From Corynebacterium jeikeium (GTDB lineage: Bacteria > Actinomycetota > Actinomycetes > Mycobacteriales > Mycobacteriaceae), in assembly GCF_000738175.1 (NCBI RefSeq), contig NZ_JFCH01000027.1, forward strand, positions 165,767 through 229,766: a DNA stretch of 64,000 nt. Reading direction: 5' to 3'. Every line of letters starts with the position of its first letter. Within the stretch, counting starts at the first letter, position 1. Both the position numbers and the translations under genes were made by a program. Shown one piece after another: positions 4,069 through 22,163 of this stretch. A model generated the notes under the pieces. It saw nothing but the letters and a program-made list of their open reading frames with translations, was not told the DNA's origin and ran no database searches.

Positions 4069-4081
4069 GGGATGTTTGTCC

Positions 4082-4744
4082 TTATCGCTCCGTATGCCGC
4101 AACCAAGCAAGCACTGCCTTTACGCGGCGATTGGCATCCTCGGGTGCAAACCCAAGCTTCATAAAAACACTAGCAACGTGCTTGCTCACTGCTCCCGCGG
4201 TCAGCACCAATTCATCCATGATCTCCGAGTTGCTCAGACCACGCGCCATTAAAGCAAGGACTTCCTTTTCCCGAGGTGTCAACGCAGCCAAGCCAGTCCG
4301 TCGCGCCGAAAGCAGTGCAGATACAACCTCTGGATCAACGACTGTTCCTCCCCGAGCAACCTCGTTAAGAGAGTGAACGAATTCATCCACATCAGAGACG
4401 CGTTCCTTCAAAAGATAGCCGAAGCCACCGTGCTCCAACAGCCGATCGAGATAGCTCGCCGCAACATACTGGCTAAGCACCATAACCGGTTGAGAAGGAT
4501 ACTGTTTGCGCAGTTCATACACGGCGCGCAGACCATCATCAGTCATGGTGGGAGGCATACGGACATCGGTGATAATCACATCGTATTTCTGTCCGTTTTC
4601 ATCACTCGCCATCGTGGCATCACGCAACTCTGACGCATCGACCACCGTCAAGACTTCATGCCCGAGCGCCTTTAGTAACTGTTCTAGTCCGGCACGAAGC
4701 AACGCAGAGTCTTCTGCAAGCAAGACCTTCAAAATATTCTCCAC
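4082..4744 (-). CDS. NarL/LuxR-type response regulator
   Basis: A 220-residue response regulator. The receiver domain (about 1-120) has the acidic pocket AEDS and the phospho-acceptor Asp in VIITDVRMPP. The C-terminal LuxR-type helix-turn-helix starts at LTPREKEVLALMARGLS. The start is GTG at 4744, sharing one base with the TAG stop of the sensor kinase, so the two are co-translated. Partner of the HisKA_3 kinase upstream; the divergent ABC exporter is the likely regulon. Confidence 0.92.
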   Translation of the reverse strand: MENILKVLLAEDSALLRAGLEQLLKALGHEVLTVVDASELRDATMASDENGQKYDVIITDVRMPPTMTDDGLRAVYELRKQYPSQPVMVLSQYVAASYLDRLLEHGGFGYLLKERVSDVDEFVHSLNEVARGGTVVDPEVVSALLSARRTGLAALTPREKEVLALMARGLSNSEIMDELVLTAGAVSKHVASVFMKLGFAPEDANRRVKAVLAWLRHTER

Positions 4745-5913
4745 TAGGTTGATTTGAGGGGTTCCGACAGGGGCAATTCAAGAATCAACTGCGCACCAGA
4801 TTCATTTTCAACCGAGCCTTCACCATCCTTAGTGTTCTGGAATTTCACCGTTCCACCAAGTGCAGCAGCACGCTCGCGCAAACCTGCAATACCCGTACCG
4901 TCCAAGTGGCGTAAATCCATAGAAGGGGATTCAATAAAGCCCACCCCATCATCTGTAATAGACACTCGTAGCCGATTCGAAAAGGCGACTCTCACGTTTA
5001 CGTGCTGAGCTTCGCCGTGTTTGGTTGCATTCGTCAAAGCTTCGGCGACGCAGTGGTACGCCAGTAGCGCCATAGTCTCGTCCAATTCCTGAGAGCTACC
5101 TTCGACGTGCAAAGCAGCGTCAACCCCTGCGTGCGCAATGAGCTCTTCAAGGGCTGCAATCAGCCCCCTATCAAAGAGCACCTGCGGAGCGATCCCCCGC
5201 ACCGTCGCACGTAATGCGCGTAATGCCTGGGAGGCATTGTGTTCTGCATCCTCCAATGCCATCTCCATAACTTCAGAGGAAGCCTGATTCCTGTAATGCA
5301 ATTTTGCAGTAGCGAGGTTGAGTTTTAGCGCTGTCAAATATTGTTGCGGCCCGTCATGGAGTTCCCGCTCGATGCGACGGCGTTCGCCAGAAAAAGCGTC
5401 GATAAGAGTGGCACGAGAAGCCGCGAGTTCCTTATCGCTGGGAGACAGCGCAAACCGAACTACAGCTATTGACGCCGCGGAAAGCAGCCGCGAGAAGATC
5501 ATCAAAAGACCAATAGCAACGGCGCCCACACCCCAAGAAACAACAAAAATAAGAATTGGATTTGAGGTGGACCATTCGCCCAGAGAAAGCTCGCCGATAG
5601 GTAGGAATGGGATGGCAATTAGTACTCCTGCGAAGAAGCCCAAAGAAACCCATGTGAAGAAGGCAGCCGCAGCAAGCACAAGCTGCATCAACAGATGAAA
5701 GAACTGTGGCCAGTCGAACCAGTGGCTCGCTTTGCGAAACGGGACTTCTGCGCCCATCCACAACGCCCCACGTCTACAGATGGCATCCGCACCACGTGCA
5801 ACAAAGGGAATCCAAGGCAGCATCAACAACGAGACAACGAATCCAGGTACGAAAAGGAGCGCGAGGACTGCGCTCCACCCCAAACTCTTCAATGTCTTCA
5901 TCGATTTCAACAC
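4744..5913 (-). CDS. Sensor histidine kinase, HisKA_3 type
   Basis: A 389-residue membrane sensor kinase. The N-terminal half has four or more hydrophobic segments. The dimerisation box is RRRIERELHDGPQQYLTAL with phospho-acceptor His in ELHDGPQQ. The ATP-binding domain has the N box LTNATKHGE and G1 box ITDDGVGF. The preferred start is GTG 5913, preceded by AAAGG nine bases upstream; ATG 5901 is an alternative. It faces an ABC exporter across a 98-base gap, an arrangement common for antimicrobial-peptide sensing and detoxification modules. That role is inferred. Confidence 0.9.
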   Translation of the reverse strand: MLKSMKTLKSLGWSAVLALLFVPGFVVSLLMLPWIPFVARGADAICRRGALWMGAEVPFRKASHWFDWPQFFHLLMQLVLAAAAFFTWVSLGFFAGVLIAIPFLPIGELSLGEWSTSNPILIFVVSWGVGAVAIGLLMIFSRLLSAASIAVVRFALSPSDKELAASRATLIDAFSGERRRIERELHDGPQQYLTALKLNLATAKLHYRNQASSEVMEMALEDAEHNASQALRALRATVRGIAPQVLFDRGLIAALEELIAHAGVDAALHVEGSSQELDETMALLAYHCVAEALTNATKHGEAQHVNVRVAFSNRLRVSITDDGVGFIESPSMDLRHLDGTGIAGLRERAAALGGTVKFQNTKDGEGSVENESGAQLILELPLSEPLKST

Positions 5914-5936
5914 TAGTAGTCGCCTTTAAGGAAAAC

Positions 5937-5954
5937 GGTAGAGCCAGCTCTACC
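5937..5954. promoter_or_regulatory. Perfect dyad between kinase and ABC exporter
   Basis: GGTAGAG-CCAG-CTCTACC is a perfect 7+4+7 inverted repeat in the divergent promoter region. A related GGTAG word follows at about 5962. It is a good candidate operator for the adjacent response regulator. Confidence 0.4.
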
Positions 5955-6011
5955 TTTATGTAGGTAGTTGGCTCCATGGCTTCCATACTGTGTGACTGCT
6001 CTGATGAGAGT

Positions 6012-6695
6012 ATGCAGAAATCAAAATCAAGAAGTCATGTCACCACTGCATCAGCTAACTCACCAGTCTCTCCGCGAGCGCTCCAAGCTCATAACCTTAC
6101 GAAGCGATTCGGTAAGCACAAGGTGCTAGACGGTCTCGAACTGAGCATTAACTCTGGTGAATTCGTCGCCATAATGGGCCCGTCTGGGAGTGGTAAAACA
6201 ACACTACTCAGAATTCTATCTGGCTTAGACAAACCTTCATCGGGCACAGTGAATTCCCCTAACCGTACCGAGCGCGCCTTCGTCTTCCAGGATTACAACC
6301 TGCTGGAATCCCTCACGGCAATGCGCAATGCGACTCTTACCGCCAGGTTTAGTGGGCGCCGCTGCTCCAAGGCTCAGGTCAAGACAATCTTTAATTCATT
6401 GGGACTTAGAGGATTCGAAAGCTATCTTCCAAATCAACTCTCCGGAGGTCAACAGCAACGTGTAGCCGTGGCTCGCGCGTTGCTTGCAAACGCACCATTC
6501 ATCTTTGCTGACGAGCCCACGGGAGCTCTCGACGATCAAACTGCTGATGTGGTGTTAAGGCATCTCAAAACAGCAACCCAATCAGGATCGACAGTGGTAA
6601 TGGTTACCCACTCCCAAAGAGCAGCCGCATATGCGGACCGCGTAATTGATCTCGCTAAAGAACCTCTGGCCACTCCTGGGAGCAGATACTCATGA
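6012..6695 (+). CDS. ABC transporter ATP-binding protein
   Basis: A 227-residue ATPase (239 if ATG 5976 is used) with Walker A GPSGSGKTT, signature LSGGQQQRVAVARALL, Walker B FIFADEPTGALD and H-loop VTHS. ATG 6012 is preferred because a GAGAG stretch lies just upstream, whereas 5976 has no visible ribosome-binding site. It pairs with the permease that overlaps its stop codon (6692-6695). The set resembles lantibiotic/bacitracin-type exporters controlled by a neighbouring two-component system. Confidence 0.88.
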   Translation: MQKSKSRSHVTTASANSPVSPRALQAHNLTKRFGKHKVLDGLELSINSGEFVAIMGPSGSGKTTLLRILSGLDKPSSGTVNSPNRTERAFVFQDYNLLESLTAMRNATLTARFSGRRCSKAQVKTIFNSLGLRGFESYLPNQLSGGQQQRVAVARALLANAPFIFADEPTGALDDQTADVVLRHLKTATQSGSTVVMVTHSQRAAAYADRVIDLAKEPLATPGSRYS

Positions 6696-7900
6696 TTGTT
6701 TGGCTTAAAGACCTAAAGTCGAATTGGTTGTCATGGCTAGCGATTTCAATCACGATGCTCGTTTCTTCCGCTAGCTGCAGTCTGGCAATTTCGATGATCT
6801 CCGCAGATGGCAAAGACGCAATTCCCCTTGGCGGAACTATCCTTGGAATGTCAATCTGTGCCATCGTTCTAGTCACGTTTAGTCAAATGCGTTTGACCAT
6901 CGAAGAACACCAACCGATTTATCAGAGTTGGCGCATGGTCGGCATGCCTGGGTGGATGATCAACCTCCTAATACTCGGCCAAGTTGCCGTAGTTAGTGCT
7001 ACTGCCTCTTTAATCGGGGCACAACTCATTCGCCCAGCGCTGAGCCCAGCAGTCGAGACTCTTCGTGGTGATGGTATCCCCATGCCTGACCTATCGGTTG
7101 ATGCCTCTGTGGTGATGTGGGTCGTACTTGCTTGTGGTGGGGCCGCTATAGCCGGCGCACTGCTACCGCTAAGACAGATTTTTCGACCACAGACCGACTC
7201 TCACCCGTTGTGGATCACAGTCCGGAGCGCGGTTGCTACGGTCGCTATTGCTGGATGCAGTATTGGAGGCGCCTGCATCGAAAAAACAGAAGATGTACTC
7301 GCCTGGGCGATGGGAATGTCAGTCCTCATACCGCTACTACTGCCCTGGCTGCTCCCCCTTCTTGACCAGTGGACACGTGTACTCGGCATTGCAGGAGCCA
7401 ACGTTCGCGTCCGACGTAACTTCTCCTCGCCGCATATCGTTCCATGGGTATTATTCGGAAGCCTCATCATCGGTGTGGGTTCAGGGCTTCGCGTAATCAA
7501 GGACGCAGAACCTGGGAGCTCAATGTCGGCATGGCAAGTTTTTGTAGTTGTCCTTGGTCCAGTTTTTGCCCCCAGCATCGCTGGCGCCGTTATGACTTCG
7601 CTCATCATGCACGCCCGAATCACAAGTGATATCCGCGGGCTTCGCCTTGCAGGTGCGCCCGGTAGGTCGTGGATTCTAATTCAAATAGGCGAAGCCTTCG
7701 CGCTTACCGGAACGGCTGCACTGGTGGTTTTGGTGTTCACGGTTCTGACCGTTGGAATAGTAAATGACCATCTCACCGGCTTTGTTTCTTTCCACGGGAT
7801 TTGGTGGACAGCGTTTGGCAGCACCTTTGCTGCGATGTTCTTGGCTCTATGCAGTATCAAACTGGCGGTGGCGTCGAGCTTAGAAACGAATCAGAAATGA
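6692..7900 (+). CDS. FtsX-like ABC transporter permease
   Basis: A 402-residue integral membrane protein with about eight to ten hydrophobic segments and little extracytoplasmic domain. The pattern of an early helix (WLAISITMLVSSASCSLAIS) and helix clusters in the middle and at the C-terminus resembles FtsX-domain permeases of peptide exporters. Translationally coupled to the ATPase (ATGA overlap). The DNA is less G+C-rich than the surrounding core genes, hinting at transfer. Substrate unknown. Confidence 0.75.
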   Translation: MIVWLKDLKSNWLSWLAISITMLVSSASCSLAISMISADGKDAIPLGGTILGMSICAIVLVTFSQMRLTIEEHQPIYQSWRMVGMPGWMINLLILGQVAVVSATASLIGAQLIRPALSPAVETLRGDGIPMPDLSVDASVVMWVVLACGGAAIAGALLPLRQIFRPQTDSHPLWITVRSAVATVAIAGCSIGGACIEKTEDVLAWAMGMSVLIPLLLPWLLPLLDQWTRVLGIAGANVRVRRNFSSPHIVPWVLFGSLIIGVGSGLRVIKDAEPGSSMSAWQVFVVVLGPVFAPSIAGAVMTSLIMHARITSDIRGLRLAGAPGRSWILIQIGEAFALTGTAALVVLVFTVLTVGIVNDHLTGFVSFHGIWWTAFGSTFAAMFLALCSIKLAVASSLETNQK

Positions 7901-8046
7901 CAAGCTCCTAGCTCCAATTCACCGCGCCCCTAGTTCACCGCACTGAGTGGAGAATAGCGCAGCTATTCCACAAGCCAAATGATGCCATCACAGGTCTCAC
8001 GCATTACGAAAACATAAGGTCAGGCGTACCGCAGTAGACTGTCGGC

Positions 8047-8718
8047 ATGTTGTCAGATGTCTTGACAAGCACAACTCGGTTCGTACGGAGCTCACTAGAT
8101 CACTTCAACGCACGCCACCCGTGGAGCCACAACGACGCATTCCACCCATGGATCTTTACCCAACTGCCGAACAACCGTGCCCGAGCGCTCGACGTTGGTT
8201 GCGGGCACGGCGTACTCGTAGCCAAGCTTGCGAAGCATTTCGAGCACGTGCACGGAATCGACCCGGATAGTTCGATGCGTCGGGCCTCAATTGACCGTTG
8301 CGCGGGACTTTCCAACGTAACCATCGACGGCACCACACTCGCCGACGCTTCCCCCGGGTTCGACCTCATCACCATGGTCGCAGTTCTGCATCACATGGAT
8401 TTAATCACAGGATTACAGCAGGTGCGGGATCACCTTGCGGAGGGAGGGCGCTTCCTTTGTGTAGGACTCGCCCACAGCGATTCGATGGCCGATCACGTAT
8501 GGGACATCGTCTGTGCCTTGACGAACCCATTGATTGGATTCATGCGCCACCCTTGGCCAAACTACGCACTATCGACCGCTCCCCTCCCTACACGCAACCC
8601 AGACCTGTCGATAGCAACAATCCGGACGGCGGTCGATCACGTTTTGCCAGGTGCGCGCGTTCGCCGTCGACTAGCGTTCAGGCACACTATCGAGTGGACC
8701 AAACCAGCCCCACAGTAA
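8047..8718 (+). CDS. Class I SAM-dependent methyltransferase
   Basis: A 223-residue protein with a SAM-binding motif I (ALDVGCGHGVLVAKLAKHF) and a downstream acidic residue (IDPDSSM), as in small-molecule methyltransferases. The motif after strand 4 is DLITMVAVLHHMD. Substrate not predictable. A second, unrelated methyltransferase starts 31 bases downstream, so the two may be co-transcribed. They lie just outside the leftmost ychF-end repeat. Confidence 0.82.
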   Translation: MLSDVLTSTTRFVRSSLDHFNARHPWSHNDAFHPWIFTQLPNNRARALDVGCGHGVLVAKLAKHFEHVHGIDPDSSMRRASIDRCAGLSNVTIDGTTLADASPGFDLITMVAVLHHMDLITGLQQVRDHLAEGGRFLCVGLAHSDSMADHVWDIVCALTNPLIGFMRHPWPNYALSTAPLPTRNPDLSIATIRTAVDHVLPGARVRRRLAFRHTIEWTKPAPQ

Positions 8719-8749
8719 AAGAAAACGCTTTTCAGATAGGGTGGGCAAC

Positions 8750-9523
8750 ATGAGTTCCCCCAGCGATGTCTGGTCCGCCAGCGACTACGCCCCGACAGCT
8801 GCACGCCTACGACCGATCTCTGAACTGGTCGCCGCGGAATTGGCCCGGCGCTTGCCCACCCCTGCAACGGTTGTCGACATCGGATCGGGGCACGGCGATG
8901 GCGTCACAGCGCTCGTCACCGAAGGCTACACCGTGACCGCTATCGAGCCGACCGCCCGAATCCGCGCGATCGGGCAGTGCAACGCGCCAAACGCCACGTG
9001 GATAGATGCACTGGGCGAAGCCACCGGCTTGGAAGACTCATCCGTTGACGCCGTCACGAGTACCTTTGGGTCGATGTTCTGCAACCCAACCACCGGACCA
9101 GCAGAATGGGCTCGCATCCTAAGGCCGGGAGGCGAGCTGGTGATGACTGCTTGGAATCAAGAAGGCTTCCTCGCCACAATGACAGACGCGATGATGGAAT
9201 CGGTAAACCCTGGAGGCTCGAAGCAGACCCCGCCACACATGGCCTGGGGTATCACCGAGGTGGCTCACGAACGCCTATCGCAATGGTTCGAAAGCATCCA
9301 CATCGAGAACCGCGAGCTGGAGTGGACATTCGACAGCGTCGAAGACGGTATGCAGCTCTACCGCGAGGGCAGTCCAACGCATGTATGGATGGCCGACCAT
9401 GCCGGCTCCCGCCGAGAGGCTCTATGGGCCGCCTTGCGCGACCACCTCAAAGCTCATGCAGATACCTCAGGACGGATCGAATCCACGACCGGCTACGTAC
9501 TCATCACAGCGCGACGGCGTTGA
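8750..9523 (+). CDS. Class I SAM-dependent methyltransferase
   Basis: A 257-residue methyltransferase with motif I VVDIGSGHGDGVTALV and a post-motif WARILRPGGELVMTAW typical of UbiE/MenG-like enzymes. ATG 8750 is chosen over GTG 8741 because AGGG lies eight bases before it. The substrate is unknown. The closest recognisable relatives are generic small-molecule methyltransferases. Confidence 0.82.
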   Translation: MSSPSDVWSASDYAPTAARLRPISELVAAELARRLPTPATVVDIGSGHGDGVTALVTEGYTVTAIEPTARIRAIGQCNAPNATWIDALGEATGLEDSSVDAVTSTFGSMFCNPTTGPAEWARILRPGGELVMTAWNQEGFLATMTDAMMESVNPGGSKQTPPHMAWGITEVAHERLSQWFESIHIENRELEWTFDSVEDGMQLYREGSPTHVWMADHAGSRREALWAALRDHLKAHADTSGRIESTTGYVLITARRR

Positions 9524-9555
9524 CGTCCGGGACCCTTGTCGAAAAGACGAGGCGC

Positions 9556-9579
9556 CTAAACGCTGAACTTGAACACCAC
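9556..9579 (-). repeat. ychF-end repeat, copy 1 (degenerate)
   Basis: Read on the minus strand this 24-mer encodes VVFKFSV-stop, two changes from the YchF C-terminus VEFKFNV-stop. It is the outermost and most degenerate copy. It lacks the GTAACC-like right arm seen in most other copies. Confidence 0.65.
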
Positions 9580-9675
9580 CGGGTTCAAGCACGTACTAAG
9601 CTCTAGGACGCACGCCCGCAGGCACGGATTCGCCGGCTTCGGCGTGGCTTGCTCTCCGGCTGATAGTGTCGAAAC

Positions 9676-10398
9676 ATGATCACCGCCACACTCCGACAGC
9701 TTGTAGAGACCGCCACTGCCCATGCGCAGCGGTGCAACGATGACCACGACCACACAGTCGCCGCCGCCTTGCTGACCAGTTCAGGCCAGACCGTACTTGG
9801 CTTGAACGCCTTCCACTTCCTCGGCGGCCCATGCGGCGAAATCTCCGCACTGGCCAACCACGCGGCCACATGCGCCGATGACCCCATTGTCGCCGTGGTC
9901 GCGGTATACGGCCCGACAGGCCAAGTGATCTCTCCGTGCGGAAAGTGTCGTCAAGTGTTGTTCGACATCGACCCCGCCATCCAATGCATTGTCCACGGCA
10001 GCAACGGGCTCGAAGCGCTGAGCCTCTCCGAGCTACTTCCCTGCGCCTATGACTGGCGTGCCATGGAACTCCCACAAAAGGTCTTCATGTGGGAAGGCTA
10101 CGAGCCGGCCATCAGAGATGGATCCAAACGCCAGACCATCCGCGTCGACGATCCCTTCCGACCCGGGCCAGCCCAGCTCGTCTTTGAGAAGGAGAACGGC
10201 GAGGTCACCACCATCGACGCGAAAGTCACCTCCGTGATTGCTACACGCCGTTGCGACCTCACTGAGGAACAAGCACAGCGTGACGGCTTCGCCTCATTGA
10301 CCAAGCTGCACAAAGCCCTCGACATGCATTATCCCGGCCTCGAAATGGAAGATAACGTCGACGTCGTGACCTTCGAATTGAGCAGCGCCGCAGAATGA
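9676..10398 (+). CDS. Cytidine deaminase-like / ASCH domain fusion
   Basis: A 240-residue two-domain protein. Residues 1-125 are a cytidine/blasticidin-type deaminase: zinc ligands and catalytic Glu in PCGEISAL (Cys53, Glu55) and the pair in PCGKCRQ (Cys88, Cys91). Residues about 128-240 form an ASCH domain (WEGYEPAIRDGSKRQTIRV, then DLTEEQAQRDGF), a fold linked to RNA or nucleotide recognition. The expected reaction is hydrolytic deamination of a cytosine nucleoside or an analogue. The Cys-Gly-Glu zinc motif, not Cys-Ala-Glu, is unusual. It is the only gene in cassette 1. Standalone deaminases are common; I do not know this fusion as a described protein. Confidence 0.82.
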   Translation: MITATLRQLVETATAHAQRCNDDHDHTVAAALLTSSGQTVLGLNAFHFLGGPCGEISALANHAATCADDPIVAVVAVYGPTGQVISPCGKCRQVLFDIDPAIQCIVHGSNGLEALSLSELLPCAYDWRAMELPQKVFMWEGYEPAIRDGSKRQTIRVDDPFRPGPAQLVFEKENGEVTTIDAKVTSVIATRRCDLTEEQAQRDGFASLTKLHKALDMHYPGLEMEDNVDVVTFELSSAAE

Positions 10399-10548
10399 GA
10401 ATCTAACCCCCAAGGTTAGCTATTGAAGCGGAACTCCCCCATGTAGCCGCGGAGATGACCATCTGTGGACCACGGGAAACCCCATCCACCCGCTCAGGAT
10501 TTGGACCACACCAAGAGGTAACGGAACAGCGGCAGCCCAGACGCCTAG

Positions 10549-10572
10549 CTAAACGTTGAACTTAAACTCCAC
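10549..10572 (-). repeat. ychF-end repeat, copy 2
   Basis: On the minus strand this 24-mer encodes VEFKFNV-TAG with synonymous codons (TTT for the first Phe, GTT for the last Val). Its right flank ends in AAAGTAACC, the conserved arm also present at copies 4-8. Confidence 0.85.
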
Positions 10573-10618
10573 TGAGCGTCGAAAGAAAGTAACCTCACCC
10601 TAGCCGATAGAACCTTTC

Positions 10619-10633
10619 CGTAATACGATTACG
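10619..10633. promoter_or_regulatory. Inverted repeat before toxin-antitoxin genes
   Basis: CGTAAT-ACG-ATTACG is a perfect 6+3+6 dyad ending three bases before the antitoxin ATG. Its position fits autoregulation by the ribbon-helix-helix antitoxin. Confidence 0.45.
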
Positions 10634-10636
10634 TTC

Positions 10637-10882
10637 ATGAAAACTATCAACGGCAAGCCAGTCAGCGAAGAGCAAATCGACGCATGGGTAGCCGAAGCTG
10701 AAAACGGCTACGACGTGGAAACGCTTCATCGCCGAGGCAGGAAACCTCGCAACGAAGATACTGCGAAGGTTATCTCCATTCGGCTCTCTCCTCGCGAAAT
10801 CTTGGACCTCGACAAATACGCAGCCGCCCACGGATGGTCCAGATCCCAGGCAATCCGCGAAGCGTTAAAGAACGCCATCTAG
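10637..10882 (+). CDS. Ribbon-helix-helix antitoxin
   Basis: An 81-residue protein. The C-terminal half (about 48-80) is a CopG/Arc-type ribbon-helix-helix: VISIRLSPREILDLDKYA then WSRSQAIREALKNAI. The N-terminal half (WVAEAENGYDVETL) resembles the toxin-binding part of actinobacterial RHH antitoxins. It precedes a small basic/acidic partner by 18 bases, the usual antitoxin-toxin order. It would bind and neutralise that partner and repress the operon. Confidence 0.75.
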   Translation: MKTINGKPVSEEQIDAWVAEAENGYDVETLHRRGRKPRNEDTAKVISIRLSPREILDLDKYAAAHGWSRSQAIREALKNAI

Positions 10883-10900
10883 ACATGGACACATGTAGGC

Positions 10901-11143
10901 ATGGACGTACGGCGTAGCGCCACGAAACACGGCATCAAGCCGGAAGACTCAGTTACTGCTGCGACATCAGGTTGCGTTTTTGCGGCCCCGCTCGACGAAG
11001 AGAACCCTCAACGGGAATTACGCCTGGGTTTCGACGGTTCAATGAGGCTGCTCGAGCTCGTCATTCTCATCTGGGACGACGGCACCGAAACGATCATCCA
11101 CTCAATGAAGGCGCGCAAACAATATCGCAGCCTGCTCGACTAG
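10901..11143 (+). CDS. Putative toxin partner of RHH antitoxin
   Basis: An 80-residue protein starting MDVRRSATKHGIKPEDS and ending with HSMKARKQYRSLL, a pattern I associate with small BrnT/RelE-like toxins paired with RHH antitoxins in actinobacteria. Function is inferred mainly from size, gene order and this C-terminal motif. Ribonuclease activity would be expected if the family call is right. Confidence 0.6.
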   Translation: MDVRRSATKHGIKPEDSVTAATSGCVFAAPLDEENPQRELRLGFDGSMRLLELVILIWDDGTETIIHSMKARKQYRSLLD

Positions 11144-11245
11144 TCACGAATAGCTTCAAAGAAACCCGGTGGTCTTCGCAGATACAGCAATCATGCGCTC
11201 GCCAGGGCACTGCAAATGTCAGATCCCATCCTTAAAATGGAGACC

Positions 11246-11596
11246 ATGAGTGATGCCAATCTCACGATCCGGCAGATCACCTTCGACTGCCACGATCCCT
11301 CAAAGCTTGCCGAATTTTGGTCCGCAGCAACAGGCTGCGAGATCGCTGCAGATTACGGCGACTTCGTTATGGTCGATTCCACCCCGACGTTGGGATTTCA
11401 GCGCGTTAAGGATCCGACGCGCGGGAAAAACCGCATGCACATCGACGTTGGCGGGGCGGAGCGCGAAGCCTTGGTGGAACTACTGAAGGGGCTAGGGGCA
11501 ACCGAACTCGGCACCCACGAGGCGCCAGGACTCGTGTGGACCGTCATGCAGGATCCGGAAGGCAACGAGTTCTGCGTGGGCAATCCCGAAGCCTAG
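11246..11596 (+). CDS. VOC-family (glyoxalase/bleomycin-resistance) protein
   Basis: A 116-residue single-domain VOC protein: N-terminal ITFDCHDPSKLAEFWSAATG and C-terminal WTVMQDPEGNEFCVG, with the metal-type Glu in GNEFCV. ATG 11246 is chosen because GGAG lies six bases before it; ATG 11216 would add ten residues. Proteins of this size either bind drugs or act as lyases. Its TAG stop abuts ychF-end copy 3, so the cassette ends exactly at this gene. Confidence 0.82.
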   Translation: MSDANLTIRQITFDCHDPSKLAEFWSAATGCEIAADYGDFVMVDSTPTLGFQRVKDPTRGKNRMHIDVGGAEREALVELLKGLGATELGTHEAPGLVWTVMQDPEGNEFCVGNPEA

Positions 11597-11620
11597 CTAA
11601 ACGTTAAACTTGAACTCCAC
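11597..11620 (-). repeat. ychF-end repeat, copy 3
   Basis: On the minus strand this encodes VEFKFNV-TAG with TTT in the second Phe codon. The preceding GCCTAG is shared with copy 2. The right flank lacks the GTAACC arm; copper cassette DNA starts directly. Confidence 0.85.
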
Positions 11621-11860
11621 ACCAACGCCGTGTCCACTACTCGGGGGACACCCCCAACATTAATGCTGCCCTGCCGGCAGACCAGGGCGGCCGTGTGAGT
11701 ATCGGACAATAATGCGTAGTCCTCCAAGGGTCTGGACACAGAGGCTTTCCCCCTTTCCTCAGTGGTGCGACCAGAGGGAGTAGAAACATCCACCCCGGTG
11801 CACCCGCTGCGGTGACAACGACCCACCGCCCGCAGCAGGTGGCAATCGTCACGGTTATCC

Positions 11861-11899
11861 CTCTTTTTCAGATTCCTGTCCTCGGGATCAGAAAAAGAC
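11861..11899. terminator. Imperfect inverted repeat ending copper operon
   Basis: CTCTTTTTCAGATTCC and GGGATCAGAAAAAGAC form an imperfect hairpin with T-rich/A-rich bases, ten bases past the end of the broken DUF305 gene. It could terminate the leftward copper operon. The rest of 11621-11908 holds no gene I can support. Confidence 0.45.
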
Positions 11900-11908
11900 G
11901 GGGACCTG

Positions 11909-12593
11909 TCATAGGTCAGTGAGCATTTGCTGCATCTGGGCGATCTCGGCCTCCTGGTCGTTGATAATTTGTTCGGCCAGGGTGGTTGCATGGGGATTCT
12001 GGCCGTCAGCCACCTCGTCACGGTCCATGTCGACCGCACCTTCGTGGTGGGCGGTCATCCGCTCCAGGTAAAGGCGGGCGGCGCCGGTGCCCTGGGCTTC
12101 CTCAAGGGCTGTCATGTCCTCCTGGCTCATCATCCCGCTCATGCCACCCATCTCGCCGTGATCCATTCCACCTATCTCATCCATGGTCCCCATGCCCCAG
12201 AGTCGGTGACCGGCTGCTGGCCCCAGGCCTCGAGCATGGCGTTCATCCGGTCAATCTCCGGTCCCTGGGCGTCAATAACCCCCTGGGCAAACTCCACGAC
12301 CTGGGCGGGGATGCCCTCCTTGGCCAGGAGCATCTCACTCATTTCCACGGCCTGCTTGTGATGGGGGATCATCATCTGGGCAAACATGATGTCCGCGTCG
12401 TTGTGATCGGCGGAGATCTCCCCGTCCTCCTCAGTCGCCGCCCTGGTGGTCTCGGTCGTCTCAGCGGTAGTCGTCACAGTGGTGGTGCCGAGGTGGTGGC
12501 GTCGGTGTTGCCTGAGTCGGTGGCCTCACCGCAGGCGGCCAGCGCCAGGATGGAGGCTACGGCGAGAGCGGAAAGAACAAGGGTGCGCTTTAT
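11909..12593 (-). pseudogene. Decayed DUF305 lipoprotein
   Basis: Three frames together spell a complete DUF305 lipoprotein. From 12593 a signal peptide (RTLVLSALAVASILALAAC, lipobox Cys) runs into TGA near 12480. A shift there opens the frame with MIPHHKQAVEMSEMLLA, which ends at 12172. A second shift near 12190 opens the Met/His-rich part (GGMDHGEMGG) ending with HHEGAVDMDRDEV and DQEAEIAQMQQML. The expected start codon reads ATA, preceded by AAAGGG. DUF305 proteins are ferritin-like, metal-associated and often sit with copper genes. Two frameshifts plus start loss indicate a pseudogene unless they are sequencing errors. Confidence 0.75.
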
Positions 12594-12681
12594 GGTGGAG
12601 CCCTTTCAGGGGCATATGGGGGCAGTGGAGAGAAGTGATGGATCAGTGGACGGCGGTGGATTTCGGAATAGGCGTGGTGTG

Positions 12682-14877
12682 TTACTCCTTCGGACTGGTG
12701 GGAGCCAGGTGGGCCGGGTCCAGATCAATCCGGCGCAACAGCTGGGCGTTCAGGGCCACCACGATGGTCGAGGCAGACATCAAGATCGCGCCCACGGCCG
12801 GGGACAGCACGAACCCGATCGAGGCGAGCACTCCGGCGGCCAGCGGCACGGCAAGGATGTTGTAGCCAGAGGACCAGACCAGGTTCTGGATCATCTTGCG
12901 GTAGCTGGCCTGGGACAGCTCAATCATCGACAGCACTGCCCGCGGGTCATCACTGGCTAGGACCACCCCGGCAGATTCCATGGCCACATCCGTGCCGGCA
13001 CCGATGGCGATACCGACCTCCGCGCGGGTCAGAGCGGGGGCGTCGTTGACACCGTCGCCGACCATGGCCACGCTCAGGCCACGCTCCTGTAACTGGGTGA
13101 CCTTGGTGTCCTTGTCCTGGGGCAGGACCTCGGCGAAGACCTCATCGATCCCCAGGTCCTGGCCAACCGCCTGGGCCACCTGCTGCGCGTCACCGGTGAT
13201 CATCGCGACTTTCACCCCGCGGTCCTGCAGGGCTTTCACGGCGGCGTGGGATTCGGGGCGGATCTTGTCCTCGACGGCCACCGCACCGATGATCTGACCG
13301 TCGCGGACAATATGGAGCACACCGGCCCCACGCCCGGTCCAGGCGCTGGTGGTGTCGGTGAGCTCGGCCGGGGTGGTGAGGTTGAACTCGCGCAGCATGT
13401 TCGGCCCGCCCACGAGGATCTCAGCGCCATCGACAGTGGCCCGGACCCCCCGGCCGGAAGCGGCGCTGAAACCAGTTGCACGGATTTGCCGACGGGAGGC
13501 CTCGGGATGGGCGGCCGCGGCCGCCACGATGGCGCGGGCCACGGGGTGCTCGCTGTCGGCCTCCGCGGCGGCGGCCAGGGCCAGCAGCTCGCCCTCGGTG
13601 ACGCCGCCAGCTGCCGCGACACCGGTGACCGCGTGCGCTCCCTCGGTCAAGGTGCCGGTTTTGTCGAAGAGCATCACGTCGATGGTGCGCATCCGCTCGA
13701 GCGCCATCCGGTCCTTGATGAGCACCCCGGATTTCGCGGCCCGCTCGGTGGAGATCGCAATGACCAGCGGAATCGCCAGGCCCAGGGCGTGCGGGCAGGC
13801 GATGACCAGTACCGTGACCGTGCGCGCCACGGCATCGTCCGGGCTGCCGATGATGGTCCACACCACCGCGGTGATCAGAGCGGAGATCAGCGCGAACCAG
13901 AACAATAACGCCGCCGCCCGATCCGCCAGGGCCTGGGCCCGGGAGGAGGACTCCTGGGCGTCGGCAACCAAGCGTTGGATCCCGGCCAGGGCGGTGTCCC
14001 CGCCGGTAGCCTCCACCCGGATGCGGACGGTGTTGTCGGTGGCCACAGTACCGGCGACCACCTTGTCACCGGTGTCGCGGAAGACGGGACGGGATTCGCC
14101 GGTGATCATCGCCTCATCGAATTCGGCGGCTCCGTCGAGGATGGTTCCGTCGGCCGGCACCCGGGCACCGGCCCTCACCAGCACGACGTCGTCGACGGCC
14201 AGCTCGGAGATGGCCACGGTGCGGGTGGTCCCGTCGATGACTTTCTCGGCCTCATCCGGCAGCAGGGCAGCCAGCGCGTCAAGCGCGGAGGACGCGGCCC
14301 CGAGAGCGCGCATCTCCAGCCAATGGCCCAGCAGCATGATGGTCACCAGCAGAGCCAGCTCCCACCAGAAGTCCAGGTCAAAACCGCCCAGCCCCAGAGT
14401 GGTGACCCAGGAGGCGACAAACGCCACGGTGATGGCCATGGCGATCAGGAGCATCATCCCGGGTTGGCGGGATTTCAGTTCGTTCCATCCGCCCTTGAGG
14501 AAAGGCGTTCCGCCGTAGACGAAGATGATCGTGCCCAGCACCGGGGGGATCCAGGTGGATCCGGGGAATGCCGGGAGATGGTAGCCGAGCAGCTGGGCGA
14601 CCATGGGGCTGAAAATAACGACGGGAATGGACAGAATCAGCGACCACCAGAAGCGTTCCCGAAACATTGCGGTGCTGTGTCCGGCGTGTTCGCCGTGACT
14701 ATGAACGTGGTGGTCGTCGTCCATGGCGGAGTGCGGGTGATCGTGGGGCATCGCCTGGCCGTGGGTGTCGGCATTTGCGTGGTGTTCGTGGCTGGCATGA
14801 TGCGGGTGGTGGGTGTGGTCTGTTTCCGGAGCGGGGTGATCACCATGGTGATCACCGGAATGGTGGGGAGTGCTCAT
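12682..14877 (-). CDS. copB: Copper-exporting P1B-type ATPase (CopB-like)
   Basis: A 731-residue heavy-metal P-type ATPase. The first 70 residues are extremely His-rich (HHSGDHHGDH and onward), a metal-binding tail in place of HMA domains. The transmembrane metal site is CPH (IACPHALGLAIP), which marks the P1B-3 CopB group. The phosphorylation motif is DKTGTLT, with TGES and GDGVNDAPAL further conserved. Start ATG 14877 has GGAAAGG before it. It exports copper, or silver, from the cytoplasm. Downstream of the HMA protein and upstream of the DUF305 remnant. Confidence 0.93.
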   Translation of the reverse strand: MSTPHHSGDHHGDHPAPETDHTHHPHHASHEHHANADTHGQAMPHDHPHSAMDDDHHVHSHGEHAGHSTAMFRERFWWSLILSIPVVIFSPMVAQLLGYHLPAFPGSTWIPPVLGTIIFVYGGTPFLKGGWNELKSRQPGMMLLIAMAITVAFVASWVTTLGLGGFDLDFWWELALLVTIMLLGHWLEMRALGAASSALDALAALLPDEAEKVIDGTTRTVAISELAVDDVVLVRAGARVPADGTILDGAAEFDEAMITGESRPVFRDTGDKVVAGTVATDNTVRIRVEATGGDTALAGIQRLVADAQESSSRAQALADRAAALLFWFALISALITAVVWTIIGSPDDAVARTVTVLVIACPHALGLAIPLVIAISTERAAKSGVLIKDRMALERMRTIDVMLFDKTGTLTEGAHAVTGVAAAGGVTEGELLALAAAAEADSEHPVARAIVAAAAAHPEASRRQIRATGFSAASGRGVRATVDGAEILVGGPNMLREFNLTTPAELTDTTSAWTGRGAGVLHIVRDGQIIGAVAVEDKIRPESHAAVKALQDRGVKVAMITGDAQQVAQAVGQDLGIDEVFAEVLPQDKDTKVTQLQERGLSVAMVGDGVNDAPALTRAEVGIAIGAGTDVAMESAGVVLASDDPRAVLSMIELSQASYRKMIQNLVWSSGYNILAVPLAAGVLASIGFVLSPAVGAILMSASTIVVALNAQLLRRIDLDPAHLAPTSPKE

Positions 14878-14929
14878 GACGTTCCTTTCCACTCAACCCG
14901 GTCGGGGTCGAGATGATGGGTAGAACTGA

Positions 14930-15256
14930 TCAGGATAAGACGGTGTAGCCGGCCTCTTCGATGGCCCGGCGAACCATCTCCGGAGGTACGACACCGGTGA
15001 CCGTGACGGTAGAAACACCACCAGCAGCGAGGTCAATCTGGACGTCGTCGACCTGGGGGAGGGCCTGAAGGGCCTGGGTCACGCTTTTCACGCAGTGCCC
15101 GCAGGTCAGGCCGGTGACCTGGTAGCTCGGGGAGGATCCTCCTGCTGACGAGTCGCTGGCGGCAGGGATGGAGGCGGTGTCGGCACGTGAGGCAGGTCCG
15201 CAACAGCTGCAGCCGTTGGAGGCCATCGGCAAGAGGCGGGGCGGGGAGGTGATCAT
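14930..15256 (-). CDS. HMA-domain copper-binding protein (CopZ-like)
   Basis: A 108-residue protein with a C-terminal heavy-metal-associated domain: VTGLTCGHCVKSVTQAL carries the CxxC pair (Cys52, Cys55). The N-terminal extension has extra cysteines (GCSCCGP). It should be a cytosolic copper chaperone delivering to the adjacent CopB ATPase. Start ATG 15256 follows AGGAG. A CsoR-like palindrome lies 49 bases upstream. Confidence 0.88.
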   Translation of the reverse strand: MITSPPRLLPMASNGCSCCGPASRADTASIPAASDSSAGGSSPSYQVTGLTCGHCVKSVTQALQALPQVDDVQIDLAAGGVSTVTVTGVVPPEMVRRAIEEAGYTVLS

Positions 15257-15304
15257 AGGAAAGCTCCTTCGGTTCGGTGGGGTTCGGCGATGCCGCTCTC
15301 CAGC

Positions 15305-15325
15305 GTATACCCCCCCGGGGTATAC
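15305..15325. promoter_or_regulatory. CsoR-type palindromic operator
   Basis: A near-perfect 21-bp palindrome: GTATACCCC, three C, GGGGTATAC. Such TACCCC-GGGGTA dyads are typical CsoR operators. It sits upstream of the HMA protein/copB genes. No csoR gene is in this window, so the repressor must be encoded elsewhere. Confidence 0.65.
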
Positions 15326-15370
15326 TTTCAAGGGGTGGAGGGCACGGCCCTCACGCGGGGCACGGTGTAG

Positions 15371-16498
15371 TCACCGAGCAGCCTCCTCACTATCGGGAGG
15401 GGACATCGGGAGGCAGAGGGCAAACACCGCTCCACGACCAGGTCCGGGGGAGGTGGCGGTGAGAGTGCCGCCGTGGGCCTCGATCAATGCCTTGGAGATG
15501 GTCAGACCGATACCGGCCCCGCCGTTGTCCCGGCTGCGAGCGGCATCCCCCCGGTAGAAGCGTTCGAAGATGTGTCCGAGCTGGCCAGGTGGGATGCCCT
15601 CGCCGTCATCGGCGACGTGGATGAGCGCGGTGGACGCCCCCTGTCGGTGGACGCTGATCCGGACCTGCCCGCCGGCCGGGGTGTGCCGTAGCGCGTTCGA
15701 CAGGAGATTGCTCATCACCTGGCCGAAGCGTTGCCGGTCCACGAGCACCCGGGCGGTGTCCGTAATGGTCTCGACCTGTAGATCGACGCCTTTGTCAGCA
15801 TAAGCTTCCCCCGCGGCAGCAGCGGCGGTATGGAGCAGATCCCCGAGCCCTTCCTCCGCCAGGTCCAAATCGATCCGGTGTTCCTGGGCCCGGGAGACAT
15901 CGTCGATGTCTTCCATCAACCGGGCCAGGCGGGTGAGTTGGTCAGCCATGATCGTGTGGGTGGCATTATTCCAGTCCACGACCCCGTCCTGGAGACCATC
16001 GAGGTAGACCGTGAGCACCGATAAGGGGGTGCCCATTTCGTGGGCCAGATCAGAGAGCATCTGGCGGCGGACCTGTTCGGTGTGTTCCAGCCGGTCGGCC
16101 ATGGTGTTGAAGGCATGCGCCAGGGTGGTGATCTCGGGGCCTGCTTCTCCGGCGGGCACGCGGATACGGGAGTTGCCGGCCGTCAGGCTGGTAGCGGCGC
16201 GGGTGAGATCCTGCAGGGGGGTGCGCAGACGACGCGATAACCACAGGCTGGCCAGCAGGGCGCTGATCAAGGCGGTGGGCAGGGCGACGGCCAGGGTGAT
16301 CAGGTTGGCGCCCCGGTAGGCCTGCTCGGCATGGAACAGCTCCAGCGAGGGGTCCTCCCGGCCGGTCATCAACATATGATCATGGAACAGGGTCGGGCCC
16401 ACCATCGTGGCCACGGCCGCGGCCACCAGCAGGCTAATCACCACGACCAACACCTGGGCGGCCAGGAAGCGGAAGGTCAGGCCGGGTCCGTGATTCAT
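15371..16498 (-). CDS. copS: Copper-responsive sensor kinase (CopS-like)
   Basis: A 375-residue sensor kinase: N-terminal helix (FRFLAAQVLVVVISLLVAAAV), periplasmic loop of about 50 residues, second helix, HAMP, then HisKA with DLAHEMGTPLSVL and HATPase with LSNALRHTP, VADDGEGIP and GGAGIGLTISKAL. The start overlaps the regulator stop (16495-16498). With the CopR box nearby, copper sensing is the best role. This pair resembles CopRS of C. glutamicum. Confidence 0.88.
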   Translation of the reverse strand: MNHGPGLTFRFLAAQVLVVVISLLVAAAVATMVGPTLFHDHMLMTGREDPSLELFHAEQAYRGANLITLAVALPTALISALLASLWLSRRLRTPLQDLTRAATSLTAGNSRIRVPAGEAGPEITTLAHAFNTMADRLEHTEQVRRQMLSDLAHEMGTPLSVLTVYLDGLQDGVVDWNNATHTIMADQLTRLARLMEDIDDVSRAQEHRIDLDLAEEGLGDLLHTAAAAAGEAYADKGVDLQVETITDTARVLVDRQRFGQVMSNLLSNALRHTPAGGQVRISVHRQGASTALIHVADDGEGIPPGQLGHIFERFYRGDAARSRDNGGAGIGLTISKALIEAHGGTLTATSPGPGRGAVFALCLPMSPPDSEEAAR

Positions 16499-17217
16499 GG
16501 CCGCCCCACCCGGTAGCCCACGCCACGCACGGTGTCGATAAACCCCCGGCCCCGGGTGTCGGTGCCGAGCTTGCGACGCAAGTTGCCGATGTGGACATCG
16601 ACGATGCGTTCATCACCGACCCAGGTGGTGTCCCAGACCTCGGTGACCAGGTCGTGGCGGGTCAGCACCTGGCCGGGGCGCAGGGCCAGGGCAACCAGCA
16701 GCTCGAACTCCGTGCGGGTGAGCTCCACAGTCGTCTCCCTCACCCGCACTTGATGGGCGACGGGGTCAAGGATGAGGTCACCAACGATCAAGGGGGTGGT
16801 CACCTGCGGTGGGGTGGTGCTGGTGCGCGGGCGGCGCAGCACCGCATGCACCCGGGTCACCAGTTCCCGGATGCTAAAAGGTTTGGTGATGTAGTCATCC
16901 GCCCCCAAGGTCAAACCGCTGATCTTGTCGTCCTCGCTGCCACGCGCGGTGAGCATGAGGATGTAGCAGTCCGAGAAGGTGCGGATCCGTCGGCACACCT
17001 CCAGGCCGTCGAGTTCGGGCAGCCCCAGATCCAGCACCACAACATCAGGGGAAAAGCGACGGGCTTCGTCCACGGCCTGGGTGCCGGTGTGCGCCTGGCG
17101 GGTATCGAAGCCGGCCCTGATGAGGTAGGAGGCCACCATCTGAGCCAGGGGTTGTTCATCATCGACGACCAGCACCCGCCCCGGGGGCGTGGCGGTGGTC
17201 GGTGTGCGGTCAGCCAT
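16495..17217 (-). CDS. copR: Copper response regulator (CopR-like, OmpR family)
   Basis: A 240-residue OmpR-type regulator. Receiver: VLVVDDEQ acidic pair, phospho-Asp in VVVLDLGLPELDG, and Lys in ITKPFSIREL. C-terminal winged helix: VELTRTEFELLVALALRPG and VDVHIGNLRRKL. ATG 17217 is chosen because the longer frame runs through the CopR box upstream. It is divergent from cueP and the oxidase. Confidence 0.9.
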   Translation of the reverse strand: MADRTPTTATPPGRVLVVDDEQPLAQMVASYLIRAGFDTRQAHTGTQAVDEARRFSPDVVVLDLGLPELDGLEVCRRIRTFSDCYILMLTARGSEDDKISGLTLGADDYITKPFSIRELVTRVHAVLRRPRTSTTPPQVTTPLIVGDLILDPVAHQVRVRETTVELTRTEFELLVALALRPGQVLTRHDLVTEVWDTTWVGDERIVDVHIGNLRRKLGTDTRGRGFIDTVRGVGYRVGRP

Positions 17218-17276
17218 AGACCCCAGTATTGCTCCGGCCAGGGGGGAATACCACCCTCGCTCAGTGCCCGGCGGGG

Positions 17277-17296
17277 AAATCTTCATCAAATCTTCA
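17277..17296 (-). promoter_or_regulatory. CopR box, 9-bp tandem repeat
   Basis: The minus strand reads TGAAGATTT-GA-TGAAGATTT, a perfect tandem repeat with 2-bp spacing, as I recall for CopR of C. glutamicum. It lies 60 bases upstream of copR, in the divergent gap before cueP, and could control both directions. The rest of 17297-17621 has no recognised gene. Confidence 0.85.
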
Positions 17297-17621
17297 AACA
17301 TCACCCATCGACCGCCGTCACCCCTGTGCCCCACCCCGGGCCGGCGGCATCGCCTCCCCTGGTCGGTTCAGCAGACGCCACCAGGGATTTCACTGCCTGC
17401 ACCGCATACCCGGGGCGGGTAGAAAGACATCGCCCACGGCTGTGGGGTGGTGTCCCGGTGGTGACCCAGCCCACCGAATCCACCCCCTTTTCGCCCTGTT
17501 ATAAGGCTGTGAGCAGGGCTTTTGATTTCTAGTCCGTCAGGAACCCGTGCTAGATAAAGGTATGACATCGACCTTGAGGCGGTGTCTTCTCACGGTCTTA
17601 CCACGATCCAAGGAGATTGAC

Positions 17622-18197: not shown

Positions 18198-18268
18198 TGG
18201 CTCAGCAGGATCCTCACCTGCGCCTGTCTCCCGTGTCACTGAAATCTTGCACCAAGAAAGGTTAAATC

Positions 18269-19744: not shown

Positions 19745-19760
19745 CCCCCACAGCAGGGTA

Positions 19761-19801
19761 TCGAGCGAGATGCGAAGGTAAATGGCAGCACGTGTTGTTA
19801 T
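19761..19801 (-). pseudogene. 5' remnant of large serine integrase
   Basis: On the minus strand this reads TTRAAIYLRISLD, the N-terminus of a serine recombinase with the catalytic Ser motif YLRIS, and then departs into unrelated sequence. It matches the longer remnant at 22141 (TTRAPIYLRISRD). The position of the start codon reads ATA. About 85 bases including the neighbouring ychF-end repeat are similar between the two sites. Confidence 0.75.
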
Positions 19802-19821
19802 ACGACTAACACTAGCGCGCC

Positions 19822-19848
19822 TTAGGTTACGTTGAACTTGAACTCCAC
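19822..19848 (-). repeat. ychF-end repeat, copy 4
   Basis: On the minus strand this encodes VEFKFNVT-TAA: one extra Thr compared with YchF. Left arm GGTTACG and right arm CTAACC (19865-19870) make an imperfect dyad of about 45 bp. The serine integrase remnant starts 20 bases to the left. Confidence 0.88.
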
Positions 19849-20516: not shown

Positions 20517-20618
20517 CTGTGCCCGACGAGAACACGTCACTGTCATAACGCGGCTCACGGTAGACGAGCATGGGTCGTTCACTACTACTGGTGGATTTCG
20601 GTTTTGGTGGTGGGGGGA

Positions 20619-21473: not shown

Positions 21474-21489
21474 CAGGTGTGCTCCGTGG

Positions 21490-22141: not shown

Positions 22142-22163
22142 ACGCTATTAATAAGGCCCTTAG

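What the first reader, a model, noticed from the sequence alone, without database searches (positions are those of the whole stretch)
9676..10398. Cytidine deaminase fused to an ASCH domain in a mobile cassette
The fusion joins a blasticidin/cytidine-deaminase-type catalytic domain (CGE and PCGKC motifs) to an ASCH domain, in a cassette with no other gene. ASCH domains bind RNA or modified nucleotides. Possible roles: deamination of a modified cytidine, resistance to a nucleoside antibiotic, or phage defence by nucleotide editing.
Basis: partly seen in the sequence, partly recalled or inferred. Interest (0 to 1): 0.65.

Follow-up and report, generated by a model that had tools for sequence, protein, structure and literature searches.

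The report
Mobile two-step modified-cytosine enzyme gene
A small movable gene in a Corynebacterium joins two enzyme halves, one that probably clips chemical groups off cytosine and one related to an antibiotic-destroying deaminase, and it sits in a row of resistance genes parked beside a housekeeping gene, so it may be an undescribed way of disarming cytosine-based antibiotics.

Summary
The fusion is real: window 9676-10398(+), 240 aa, deaminase (aa 7-99) plus ASCH (aa 138-235), both above Pfam cut-offs, with relatives in Corynebacterium, Propioniferax, Zimmermannella, Rhodococcus, Curtobacterium and Streptomyces. It is alone in an about 0.86-kb cassette between copies of the ychF 3' end. Ten such copies punctuate a resistance/stress array (4072-31473), and two related genomes lack repeat-bounded blocks of it. 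'Mobile cassette' is right; 'ASCH binds RNA' is probably wrong. The ASCH half matches YqfB, the N4-acetylcytidine amidohydrolase (profile E 1.7e-8), and keeps its catalytic Lys, Thr, Arg and its Tyr in 13 of 13 fusions, with Asp/Glu for the catalytic Glu. The deaminase half is blasticidin-S-deaminase-like (E 1e-25 against 9e-9 for cytidine deaminase) and lacks the NxE motif of cytidine deaminases. Best reading: a two-step enzyme, N4-acylcytosine to cytosine to uracil, likeliest for detoxifying cytosine nucleoside antibiotics, less likely for ac4C salvage. Neither activity was tested; the fold prediction failed. Phage defence found no support.

The parts
9676..10398 (+). CDS of the deaminase-ASCH fusion, 240 aa
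9676..10065 (+). blasticidin-S-deaminase-like half (aa 1-130); predicted Zn ligands C53, C88, C91 and catalytic E55 by alignment to BSD
10069..10383 (+). YqfB-type ASCH half (aa 132-236); predicted K151, T154, R156, D203, Y219 = YqfB K21, T24, R26, E74, Y89
   Evidence: YqfB residue roles from PMC6972931 (passages)
9560..9579 (+). left cassette repeat (copy of the ychF 3' end)
10420..10439 (+). right cassette repeat, diverged (3 mismatches to the degenerate motif); the same place in Propioniferax has 2 mismatches
10553..10572 (+). array repeat
11601..11620 (+). array repeat
19829..19848 (+). array repeat
22168..22187 (+). array repeat
25074..25093 (+). array repeat; edge of a block absent in G440 and G476
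26894..26913 (+). array repeat
28261..28280 (+). array repeat; edge of a block absent in G476
31476..31495 (+). array repeat at the 3' end of ychF itself (the presumed insertion site)
31472..32554 (-). ychF, host gene whose 3' end is the presumed attachment site
   Evidence: TIGR00092 E 4.2e-130
4072..31473 (.). variable cassette array; left edge set by loss of collinearity with one genome, G476, after window 4071 (no repeat seen there)

Best explanation
A mobile, single-gene cassette encodes a bifunctional enzyme that takes apart N4-acylated cytosine compounds in two steps. The ASCH half hydrolyses the N4-acyl amide (T154 nucleophile, K151 base, D203 acid, R156 oxyanion hole, as proposed for YqfB). 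The blasticidin-S-deaminase-like half, with Zn bound by C53/C88/C91 and E55 as proton shuttle, then deaminates the freed cytosine to uracil. The likeliest natural purpose is detoxification of cytosine nucleoside antibiotics (blasticidin S type and N4-acylated amicetin/plicacetin type), carried like the neighbouring erm, mercury and metal genes in a resistance array at the 3' end of ychF. Shown: the domain fusion, residue conservation, the match to YqfB and BSD, the repeat-bounded array and its presence/absence in related genomes, and transfer between distant genera. Inferred: both catalytic activities, their order, and the substrates.
For: Deaminase half: BSD structures E about 1e-25 against 8.6e-9 for the best cytidine deaminase. 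It falls in a clade with stand-alone BSD-like proteins apart from cytidine deaminases (support 0.87-0.98, midpoint-rooted). 0 of 18 members of that clade have the N-x-E motif that 19 of 20 of the other sequences have; 38 of 40 extracted sequences were used, 2 dropped for length. ASCH half: profile hits YqfB 1te7 E 1.7e-8 and the ac4C amidohydrolase 9kyf E 9.2e-8; the next ASCH structure, 1xne, is at E 0.41. K, T, R and Y are invariant in 13 of 13 fusions; the acid position is D in 11 and E in 2. Of nine ASCH domains outside this family in the genomes searched, none of the seven readable at the motif has K, T and R together: four have KxxTxG, three have [KR]xxExR. The ASCH half persists where the deaminase is missing (G607) or degenerate (G627), as expected of an enzyme rather than a targeting module. 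Resistance context: 94% erm(X) relative, MerA, Cu and Cd/Zn ATPases. Transfer: fusion 92% and 85% identical in Propioniferax and Zimmermannella, where YchF is 68% and 71%.
Against: No activity was measured. The ASCH half is far below the NCBIfam cut-off for N4-acetylcytidine amidohydrolase (16.6 against 93 bits), so it is not filed as a YqfB ortholog. YqfB's Glu74 is Asp in 11 of 13 fusions, its His70 is Q, H or D, and its Asp27 is not kept; in YqfB, H70A cost more than tenfold (PMC6972931, passages). The nucleophile-type Thr alone is not special: four other actinobacterial ASCH domains have it too, without the Arg. L008 and L009 have Asp for a zinc-ligand Cys, and Pfam finds the deaminase domain in only 10 of 13 fusions at E 1e-3. 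Array context is not general: of 27 Corynebacterium carriers, 3 are near ychF, 11 are on the same contig but 95 kb or more away, and 13 are on other contigs and cannot be told; none of the 18 loci L039-L056 nor L005-L009 has a ychF-type repeat with up to 2 mismatches in the flank held. None of the four plasmid neighbourhoods read shows an obvious nucleoside-antibiotic cluster.
Confidence: 0.48

Rival explanations
1. Nucleoside salvage: the fusion recycles N4-acetylcytidine and related modified nucleosides from tRNA/rRNA turnover into uridine. It is a metabolic aid rather than a resistance gene.
For: YqfB's best substrate is ac4C (PMC6972931, PMC9599836; passages). [quoted passage not shown] passages). 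Corynebacterium copies away from ychF show no ychF-type repeats in the flank held.
Against: The deaminase half lacks the N-x-E motif of cytidine deaminases and is BSD-like; the NCBIfam model cyt_deam_tetra is far below cut-off (42.8 against 113.65). Distribution is patchy and partly horizontal.
Confidence: 0.25
2. Single-substrate variant: the deaminase half alone does the job, directly removing N4-acyl amide or NH2, and the ASCH half only recognises the modified base.
For: Prokaryotic tetrameric CDAs can remove N4-acyl groups directly as amides (PMC9897663, abstract and passages). In the Corynebacterium-type clade the motif is CGE instead of CAE, next to the active site.
Against: ASCH keeps YqfB's catalytic K, T, R in 13 of 13 and survives without a working deaminase in G607 and G627.
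Confidence: 0.12
3. RNA or nucleotide-editing device for phage defence, ASCH as RNA-binding module.
For: Position in a mobile array; PUA-like ASCH folds can bind RNA (recalled); one ASCH protein, ZmASCH, has published ribonuclease activity (mentioned in PMC9599836, passages).
Against: 0 of 13 PADLOC matches; no related viral contig with deaminase-half patterns. The YqfB-type ASCH proteins tested showed no nucleic-acid binding or RNase activity (PMC9599836, passages).
Confidence: 0.05

Closest known systems
E. coli YqfB, N4-acetylcytidine amidohydrolase (PDB 1te7, 9kyf)
   Same: ASCH domain, GxKxxTxR octapeptide (12 of 13 fusions; A for G in L007), catalytic K/T/R and Tyr at aligned positions
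   Different: Fused to a deaminase; acid mostly Asp instead of Glu; His70 and Asp27 not conserved; below the NCBIfam equivalog cut-off
Blasticidin-S deaminase (PDB 1wn5/2z3j)
   Same: Zn motif, GGPCxE and PCGxCRQVL, LLPxxYxW tail in the window protein, no N-x-E motif
   Different: Carries a C-terminal ASCH domain; CGE instead of CAE in the Corynebacterium-type clade; the Y or W of the tail is changed in some fusions
SCC-type cassettes (SCCmec, Enterococcus cassette chromosome; recalled, plus the listing of PMC6222049)
   Same: Serial cassettes between direct repeats at the 3' end of one host gene, with a large serine recombinase next to it in some genomes
   Different: Target is ychF, not rlmH (recalled); the window genome has no PF07508 large serine recombinase
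Integron gene cassettes
   Same: Small gene units in a row
   Different: Repeats are copies of a host gene end; integron integrase and attC structure were not searched for

Membership tests
ASCH domain superfamily | Pfam PF04266 above gathering score | tested here: met
   40.4 bits against 21.2; 13 of 13 fusions match at E 1e-3
YqfB-type N4-acylcytosine amidohydrolase | catalytic Lys21, Thr24, Arg26 | tested here: met
   K151, T154, R156 invariant in 13 of 13; absent as a set in 7 of 7 readable ASCH domains outside the family
YqfB-type N4-acylcytosine amidohydrolase | catalytic acid Glu74 | tested here: inconclusive
   D in 11 of 13, E in 2 of 13
YqfB-type N4-acylcytosine amidohydrolase | NCBIfam NF003443 equivalog cut-off | tested here: not met
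   16.6 against 93 bits; so it works like YqfB at most and is not filed as YqfB
YqfB-type N4-acylcytosine amidohydrolase | hydrolysis of N4-acetylcytidine | not testable with these tools
   needs purified protein
Blasticidin-S deaminase | closest solved relatives are BSDs; no N-x-E motif | tested here: met
Blasticidin-S deaminase | three zinc Cys and catalytic Glu | tested here: met
   C53, E55, C88, C91 in the window protein; 2 of 13 fusions have Asp at position 91
Blasticidin-S deaminase | deaminates blasticidin S | not testable with these tools
   needs assay
Tetrameric cytidine deaminase | TIGR01354 cut-off | tested here: not met
   42.8 against 113.65 bits
SCC-like serine-recombinase cassette island | direct repeats at a host gene 3' end, repeat-bounded presence/absence | tested here: met
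   (two related genomes compared)
SCC-like serine-recombinase cassette island | resident large serine recombinase | tested here: not met
   0 matches to PF07508 in the window genome; next to ychF in 4 of 25 array genomes searched

The most novel reading that the evidence does not exclude
A new kind of nucleoside-antibiotic resistance: one mobile protein that first strips the N4-acyl arm from amicetin-type antibiotics and then deaminates the cytosine of the product (and of blasticidin S), spread among actinobacteria on ychF-targeted cassette arrays that also carry an erm(X) relative and metal resistance.
Probability: 0.28. Interest if true: 0.75.

Novelty: new variant of a known kind. Interest (0 to 1): 0.52.

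Why it matters
Both halves resemble characterised enzymes with easy assays, so the proposed two-step chemistry can be tested directly. If correct it turns a published speculation (CDA and YqfB-like enzymes acting in concert, PMC9897663, passages) into a covalently linked enzyme and adds a mobile gene to the resistance repertoire against cytosine nucleoside inhibitors of the ribosome. The ychF arrays would be a little-described reservoir of mobile resistance cassettes in Corynebacterium (none found described).

Tried and rejected
Phage defence: PADLOC (0 of 13 at E 0.01), viral contigs (0 relatives of 14 pattern matches, patterns from the deaminase half only), phage records (2 weak partial hits). 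Structure: one AlphaFold2 job with the window, L003 and L004 proteins, the ones I took to be permitted, gave mean pLDDT 50.3 and pTM 0.33; no fold search was run on it and the second job was not used. Classical cytidine deaminase: rejected on NCBIfam score and missing N-x-E motif. Integron: not pursued once the repeats proved to match the ychF 3' end. Housekeeping gene: thought unlikely because 27 of 242 Corynebacterium genomes hold it at E 1e-10 and, in the phylum sample of 396, only the own genome and G193 show a match through both halves among the listed matches (the list is cut). My first test of the ASCH octapeptide (Thr in fusions against Glu elsewhere) was too simple: one search shows four further ASCH domains with Thr but Gly in place of the Arg; the claim now rests on K, T and R together. 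Single origin of the fusion: the deaminase tree puts the Streptomyces/Curtobacterium fusions with stand-alone deaminases, but with weak inner support (0.45), so multiple fusion or loss is left open. Literature: no paper found for 'ASCH domain' plus 'cytidine deaminase'. For ychF islands, one search listed one paper (on a pneumococcus; not opened) and two (the ychF passages of PMC1796617 are about phylogeny; the other was not opened). Amicetin-hydrolase searches listed no described resistance enzyme of this kind in the titles and abstract starts shown (20 of 167 papers; all 7 and all 6 in the others); apart from PMC6972931 and PMC9599836, read in passages, those papers were not opened. One search (614 papers, 10 shown) gave nothing to the point. 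Only freely licensed papers are in that library.

Full report
OBSERVATION. The ORF at 9676-10398(+) encodes 240 aa with two Pfam domains above their gathering scores: dCMP_cyt_deam_1 (aa 7-99, E 1.2e-6) and ASCH (aa 138-235, E 5.3e-10). The window is part of a 2.42-Mb genome. A Corynebacterium sp. HMSC08A12 contig carries the identical protein and is 98.1% identical to the window over 12.7 kb, so the source is taken to be a Corynebacterium.

WHO HAS IT. Close relatives outside Corynebacterium: Propioniferax innocua 92% and [Zimmermannella] alba 85% amino-acid identity. Of 72,556 plasmid records 26 match and 7 cover at least 80% of the query: Rhodococcus gordoniae 63%; four Streptomyces, one Curtobacterium and one Embleya 30-38%. 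In Corynebacterium 27 of 242 genomes match at E 1e-10 or better: 22 with an apparently whole copy (six of those matches count one stop, which is the natural end of a 236-aa ORF), and five others: G606 (query residues 2-183 only), G411 (105-238 only), G435 (two pieces), G607 (ASCH only) and G627 (whole length but degenerate deaminase); L077, L081 and L083, from G607, G627 and G435, were read. In a phylum sample 210 of 396 genomes match at E 1e-3, but among the listed matches only the own genome and G193 run through the ASCH half; the rest are deaminase matches (list cut).

THE DEAMINASE HALF. Solved structures: blasticidin-S deaminases at E 9.8e-26 to 3.2e-22, the best cytidine deaminase at 8.6e-9. 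The tetrameric cytidine deaminase model scores 42.8 against a cut-off of 113.65. In a midpoint-rooted tree of 38 deaminase domains (40 extracted, L018 and L032 dropped because under 85 residues), 12 of the 13 fusions of alignment A1 (L051 was left out) fall with six stand-alone proteins (L010-L015; 18 tips, support 0.87; with L020, 0.98). At the loop before the first zinc Cys, 19 of the 20 other sequences have N-[IV]-E, while 0 of the 18 do; that this Glu contacts the ribose is recalled, not from a call. The window-type clade (8 tips, support 0.99) has CGE where the other fusions have CAE. L008 and L009 have PCGRD in place of PCGxC, and L010 has Asp at the first zinc Cys position. Pfam finds the deaminase domain in 10 of the 13 fusions and ASCH in 13 of 13 at E 1e-3.

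THE ASCH HALF. phmmer of the half alone finds only YqfB, weakly (1te7, E 0.025). A profile of 13 fusion ASCH domains finds 1te7 at E 1.7e-8 and the ac4C amidohydrolase 9kyf at 9.2e-8; the next ASCH structure, 1xne, has E 0.41, level with unrelated proteins. In YqfB, K21A, T24A and R26A are inactive, E74A loses 100- to 1000-fold, H70A more than tenfold and Y89A more than threefold (PMC6972931, passages). By alignment these are K151, T154, R156, D203, Q199 and Y219. K, T, R and Y are invariant in 13 of 13; position 203 is D in 11 and E in 2; position 199 is Q in 7, H in 2 and D in 4; YqfB's Asp27 is not kept. A search for ASCH in 20 chosen genomes gave 15 matches. Six belong to this family: five have K, T and R and the sixth, the split copy of G435, has A for T. 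Of the other nine, four (L073, L074, L075, L086) have KxxTxG, three (L079, L084, L087) have [KR]xxExR, and two (L080, L082) cannot be read at the motif. So Thr alone is not distinctive, but K, T and R together are. In G607 the ASCH half stands alone, and in G627 the deaminase half has lost CGE and PCGKC while K, T, R, D and HYPG remain. So the ASCH half looks like an enzyme kept for its own sake. The YqfB-type proteins tested in PMC9599836 showed no nucleic-acid binding or RNase activity, though that paper mentions RNase activity of another ASCH protein, ZmASCH (passages).

THE CASSETTE ARRAY. A 22-base repeat occurs 9 times in the window, all on + (0.00 expected). The last copy is the end of ychF (31472-32554, minus; TIGR00092 E 4.2e-130), so the repeats are read as copies of the ychF 3' end. 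Genome-wide, all 9 are in this place, with 2 weaker 3-mismatch matches elsewhere and 0 for the reversed control. A diverged copy at 10420 closes the fusion cassette. Homology to Propioniferax runs from inside the left repeat to inside this right one (window 9571-10433, 92.9%) and then stops. In Propioniferax the fusion is again between ychF-like repeats, 10 kb from ychF and in the same orientation, and two further window genes (epimerase, HigA) have relatives, 72-74% in DNA, near it. Against a simple picture: the 3' end of Propioniferax's own ychF does not match the motif. In Zimmermannella the fusion follows ychF directly but in the other orientation; its right-hand repeat has 4 mismatches, no better than chance matches in that locus, and is recognised by position only. 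In G627 the fusion lies about 90 bp from ychF. YchF is 68% and 71% identical in Propioniferax and Zimmermannella against 92% and 85% for the fusion, so the fusion moved horizontally.

REPEAT-BOUNDED CHANGE. G440 lacks window 25095-31472, with a 24-base overlap at the repeat. G476 lacks 25091-28257, with a 20-base overlap, and lacks 4072-11618, which includes the fusion cassette and is replaced by 818 bp holding one repeat. Whether these are gains or losses was not determined. Collinearity with G476 left of 4071 marks the array's left edge. Array genes: MerA (29104-30540), HigA antitoxin (26274-26675), ArfB (25635-26219), Cd/Zn-type ATPase (22697-24628), Erm (20619-21515; 15 of 15 plasmid matches at 90-95%, the best to erm(X)), a copper system (12-19.7 kb) and a glyoxalase (11216-11596).

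THE ARRAYS BEYOND THIS GENOME. A degenerate ychF-end motif matches 172 of 242 Corynebacterium genomes (reversed control: 1 match in all, G409). 73 of 242 have two or more copies on one strand and 47 have three or more (retyped); that all these lie at ychF was not checked. I chose 25 of the 73 for a recombinase search: 11 of 25 have a PF07508 match. In 4 of them (G397, G454, G477, G494) a 503-aa recombinase ORF begins 18-20 bp after the ychF stop; in the other 7 the matches lie far from the listed repeats. The window genome has none, so its array may be immobile now or served in trans.

COPIES AWAY FROM ychF. Of the 27 Corynebacterium carriers, 3 are near ychF (G000, G440, G627), 11 are on the same contig but 95 kb or more away, and 13 are on other contigs. 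None of the loci L039-L056 (1.5-kb flanks) or L005-L009 has a ychF-type repeat with up to 2 mismatches. Between some of these lineages homology is confined to the ORF plus some 50-60 bp on each side (L044 against L045), while others share longer flanks (L044 against L049).

CONCLUSION AND LIMITS. The evidence supports a bifunctional N4-acylcytosine hydrolase/deaminase by homology and residue conservation, here on a mobile resistance array. Which substrate matters in nature is not settled: the BSD-type half and the company of resistance genes favour nucleoside antibiotics, while YqfB's known substrate favours ac4C salvage. The amicetin idea rests on recalled chemistry (a cytosine N4 amide on a pyranosyl nucleoside), not on a call. 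No structure supports the active sites.

Noticed in passing
window 19829-22187, CDS 20619-21515(-): An erm gene 94% identical to plasmid-borne erm(X) is a cassette of the ychF array, a possible chromosomal reservoir of erm(X).
   Followed up: partly
Corynebacterium genomes; L089, L091, L092, L093: ychF 3'-end motifs occur twice or more on one strand in 73 of 242 genomes; in 4 genomes a 503-aa large serine recombinase starts 18-20 bp after ychF. No description found.
   Followed up: partly
L008, L009, L010: BSD-like deaminases with a zinc-ligand Cys replaced by Asp (PCGRD in two fusions, GGPDAE in a stand-alone one).
   Followed up: no
window 22168-22212, 28261-28305 and other repeats: A second conserved stretch (GTTGCAAAGTTAC-like) just inside several repeats, possibly the element's half of the recombination site.
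   Followed up: no
window 25635-26219(+): ArfB-like ribosome rescue factor in a mobile cassette next to a HigA antitoxin gene.
   Followed up: no
L044 against L045 and relatives: Some fusion copies away from ychF share only the ORF plus some 50-60 bp between lineages, as if the gene moves alone by another route.
   Followed up: partly
L005:6709-9779 (Rhodococcus gordoniae plasmid): The 63% identical fusion lies between an IS3 and an IS5 transposase gene.
   Followed up: no
L073, L074, L075, L086: Another ASCH class in actinobacteria with the octapeptide GxKxxTxG (Thr without the Arg), function not examined.
   Followed up: no
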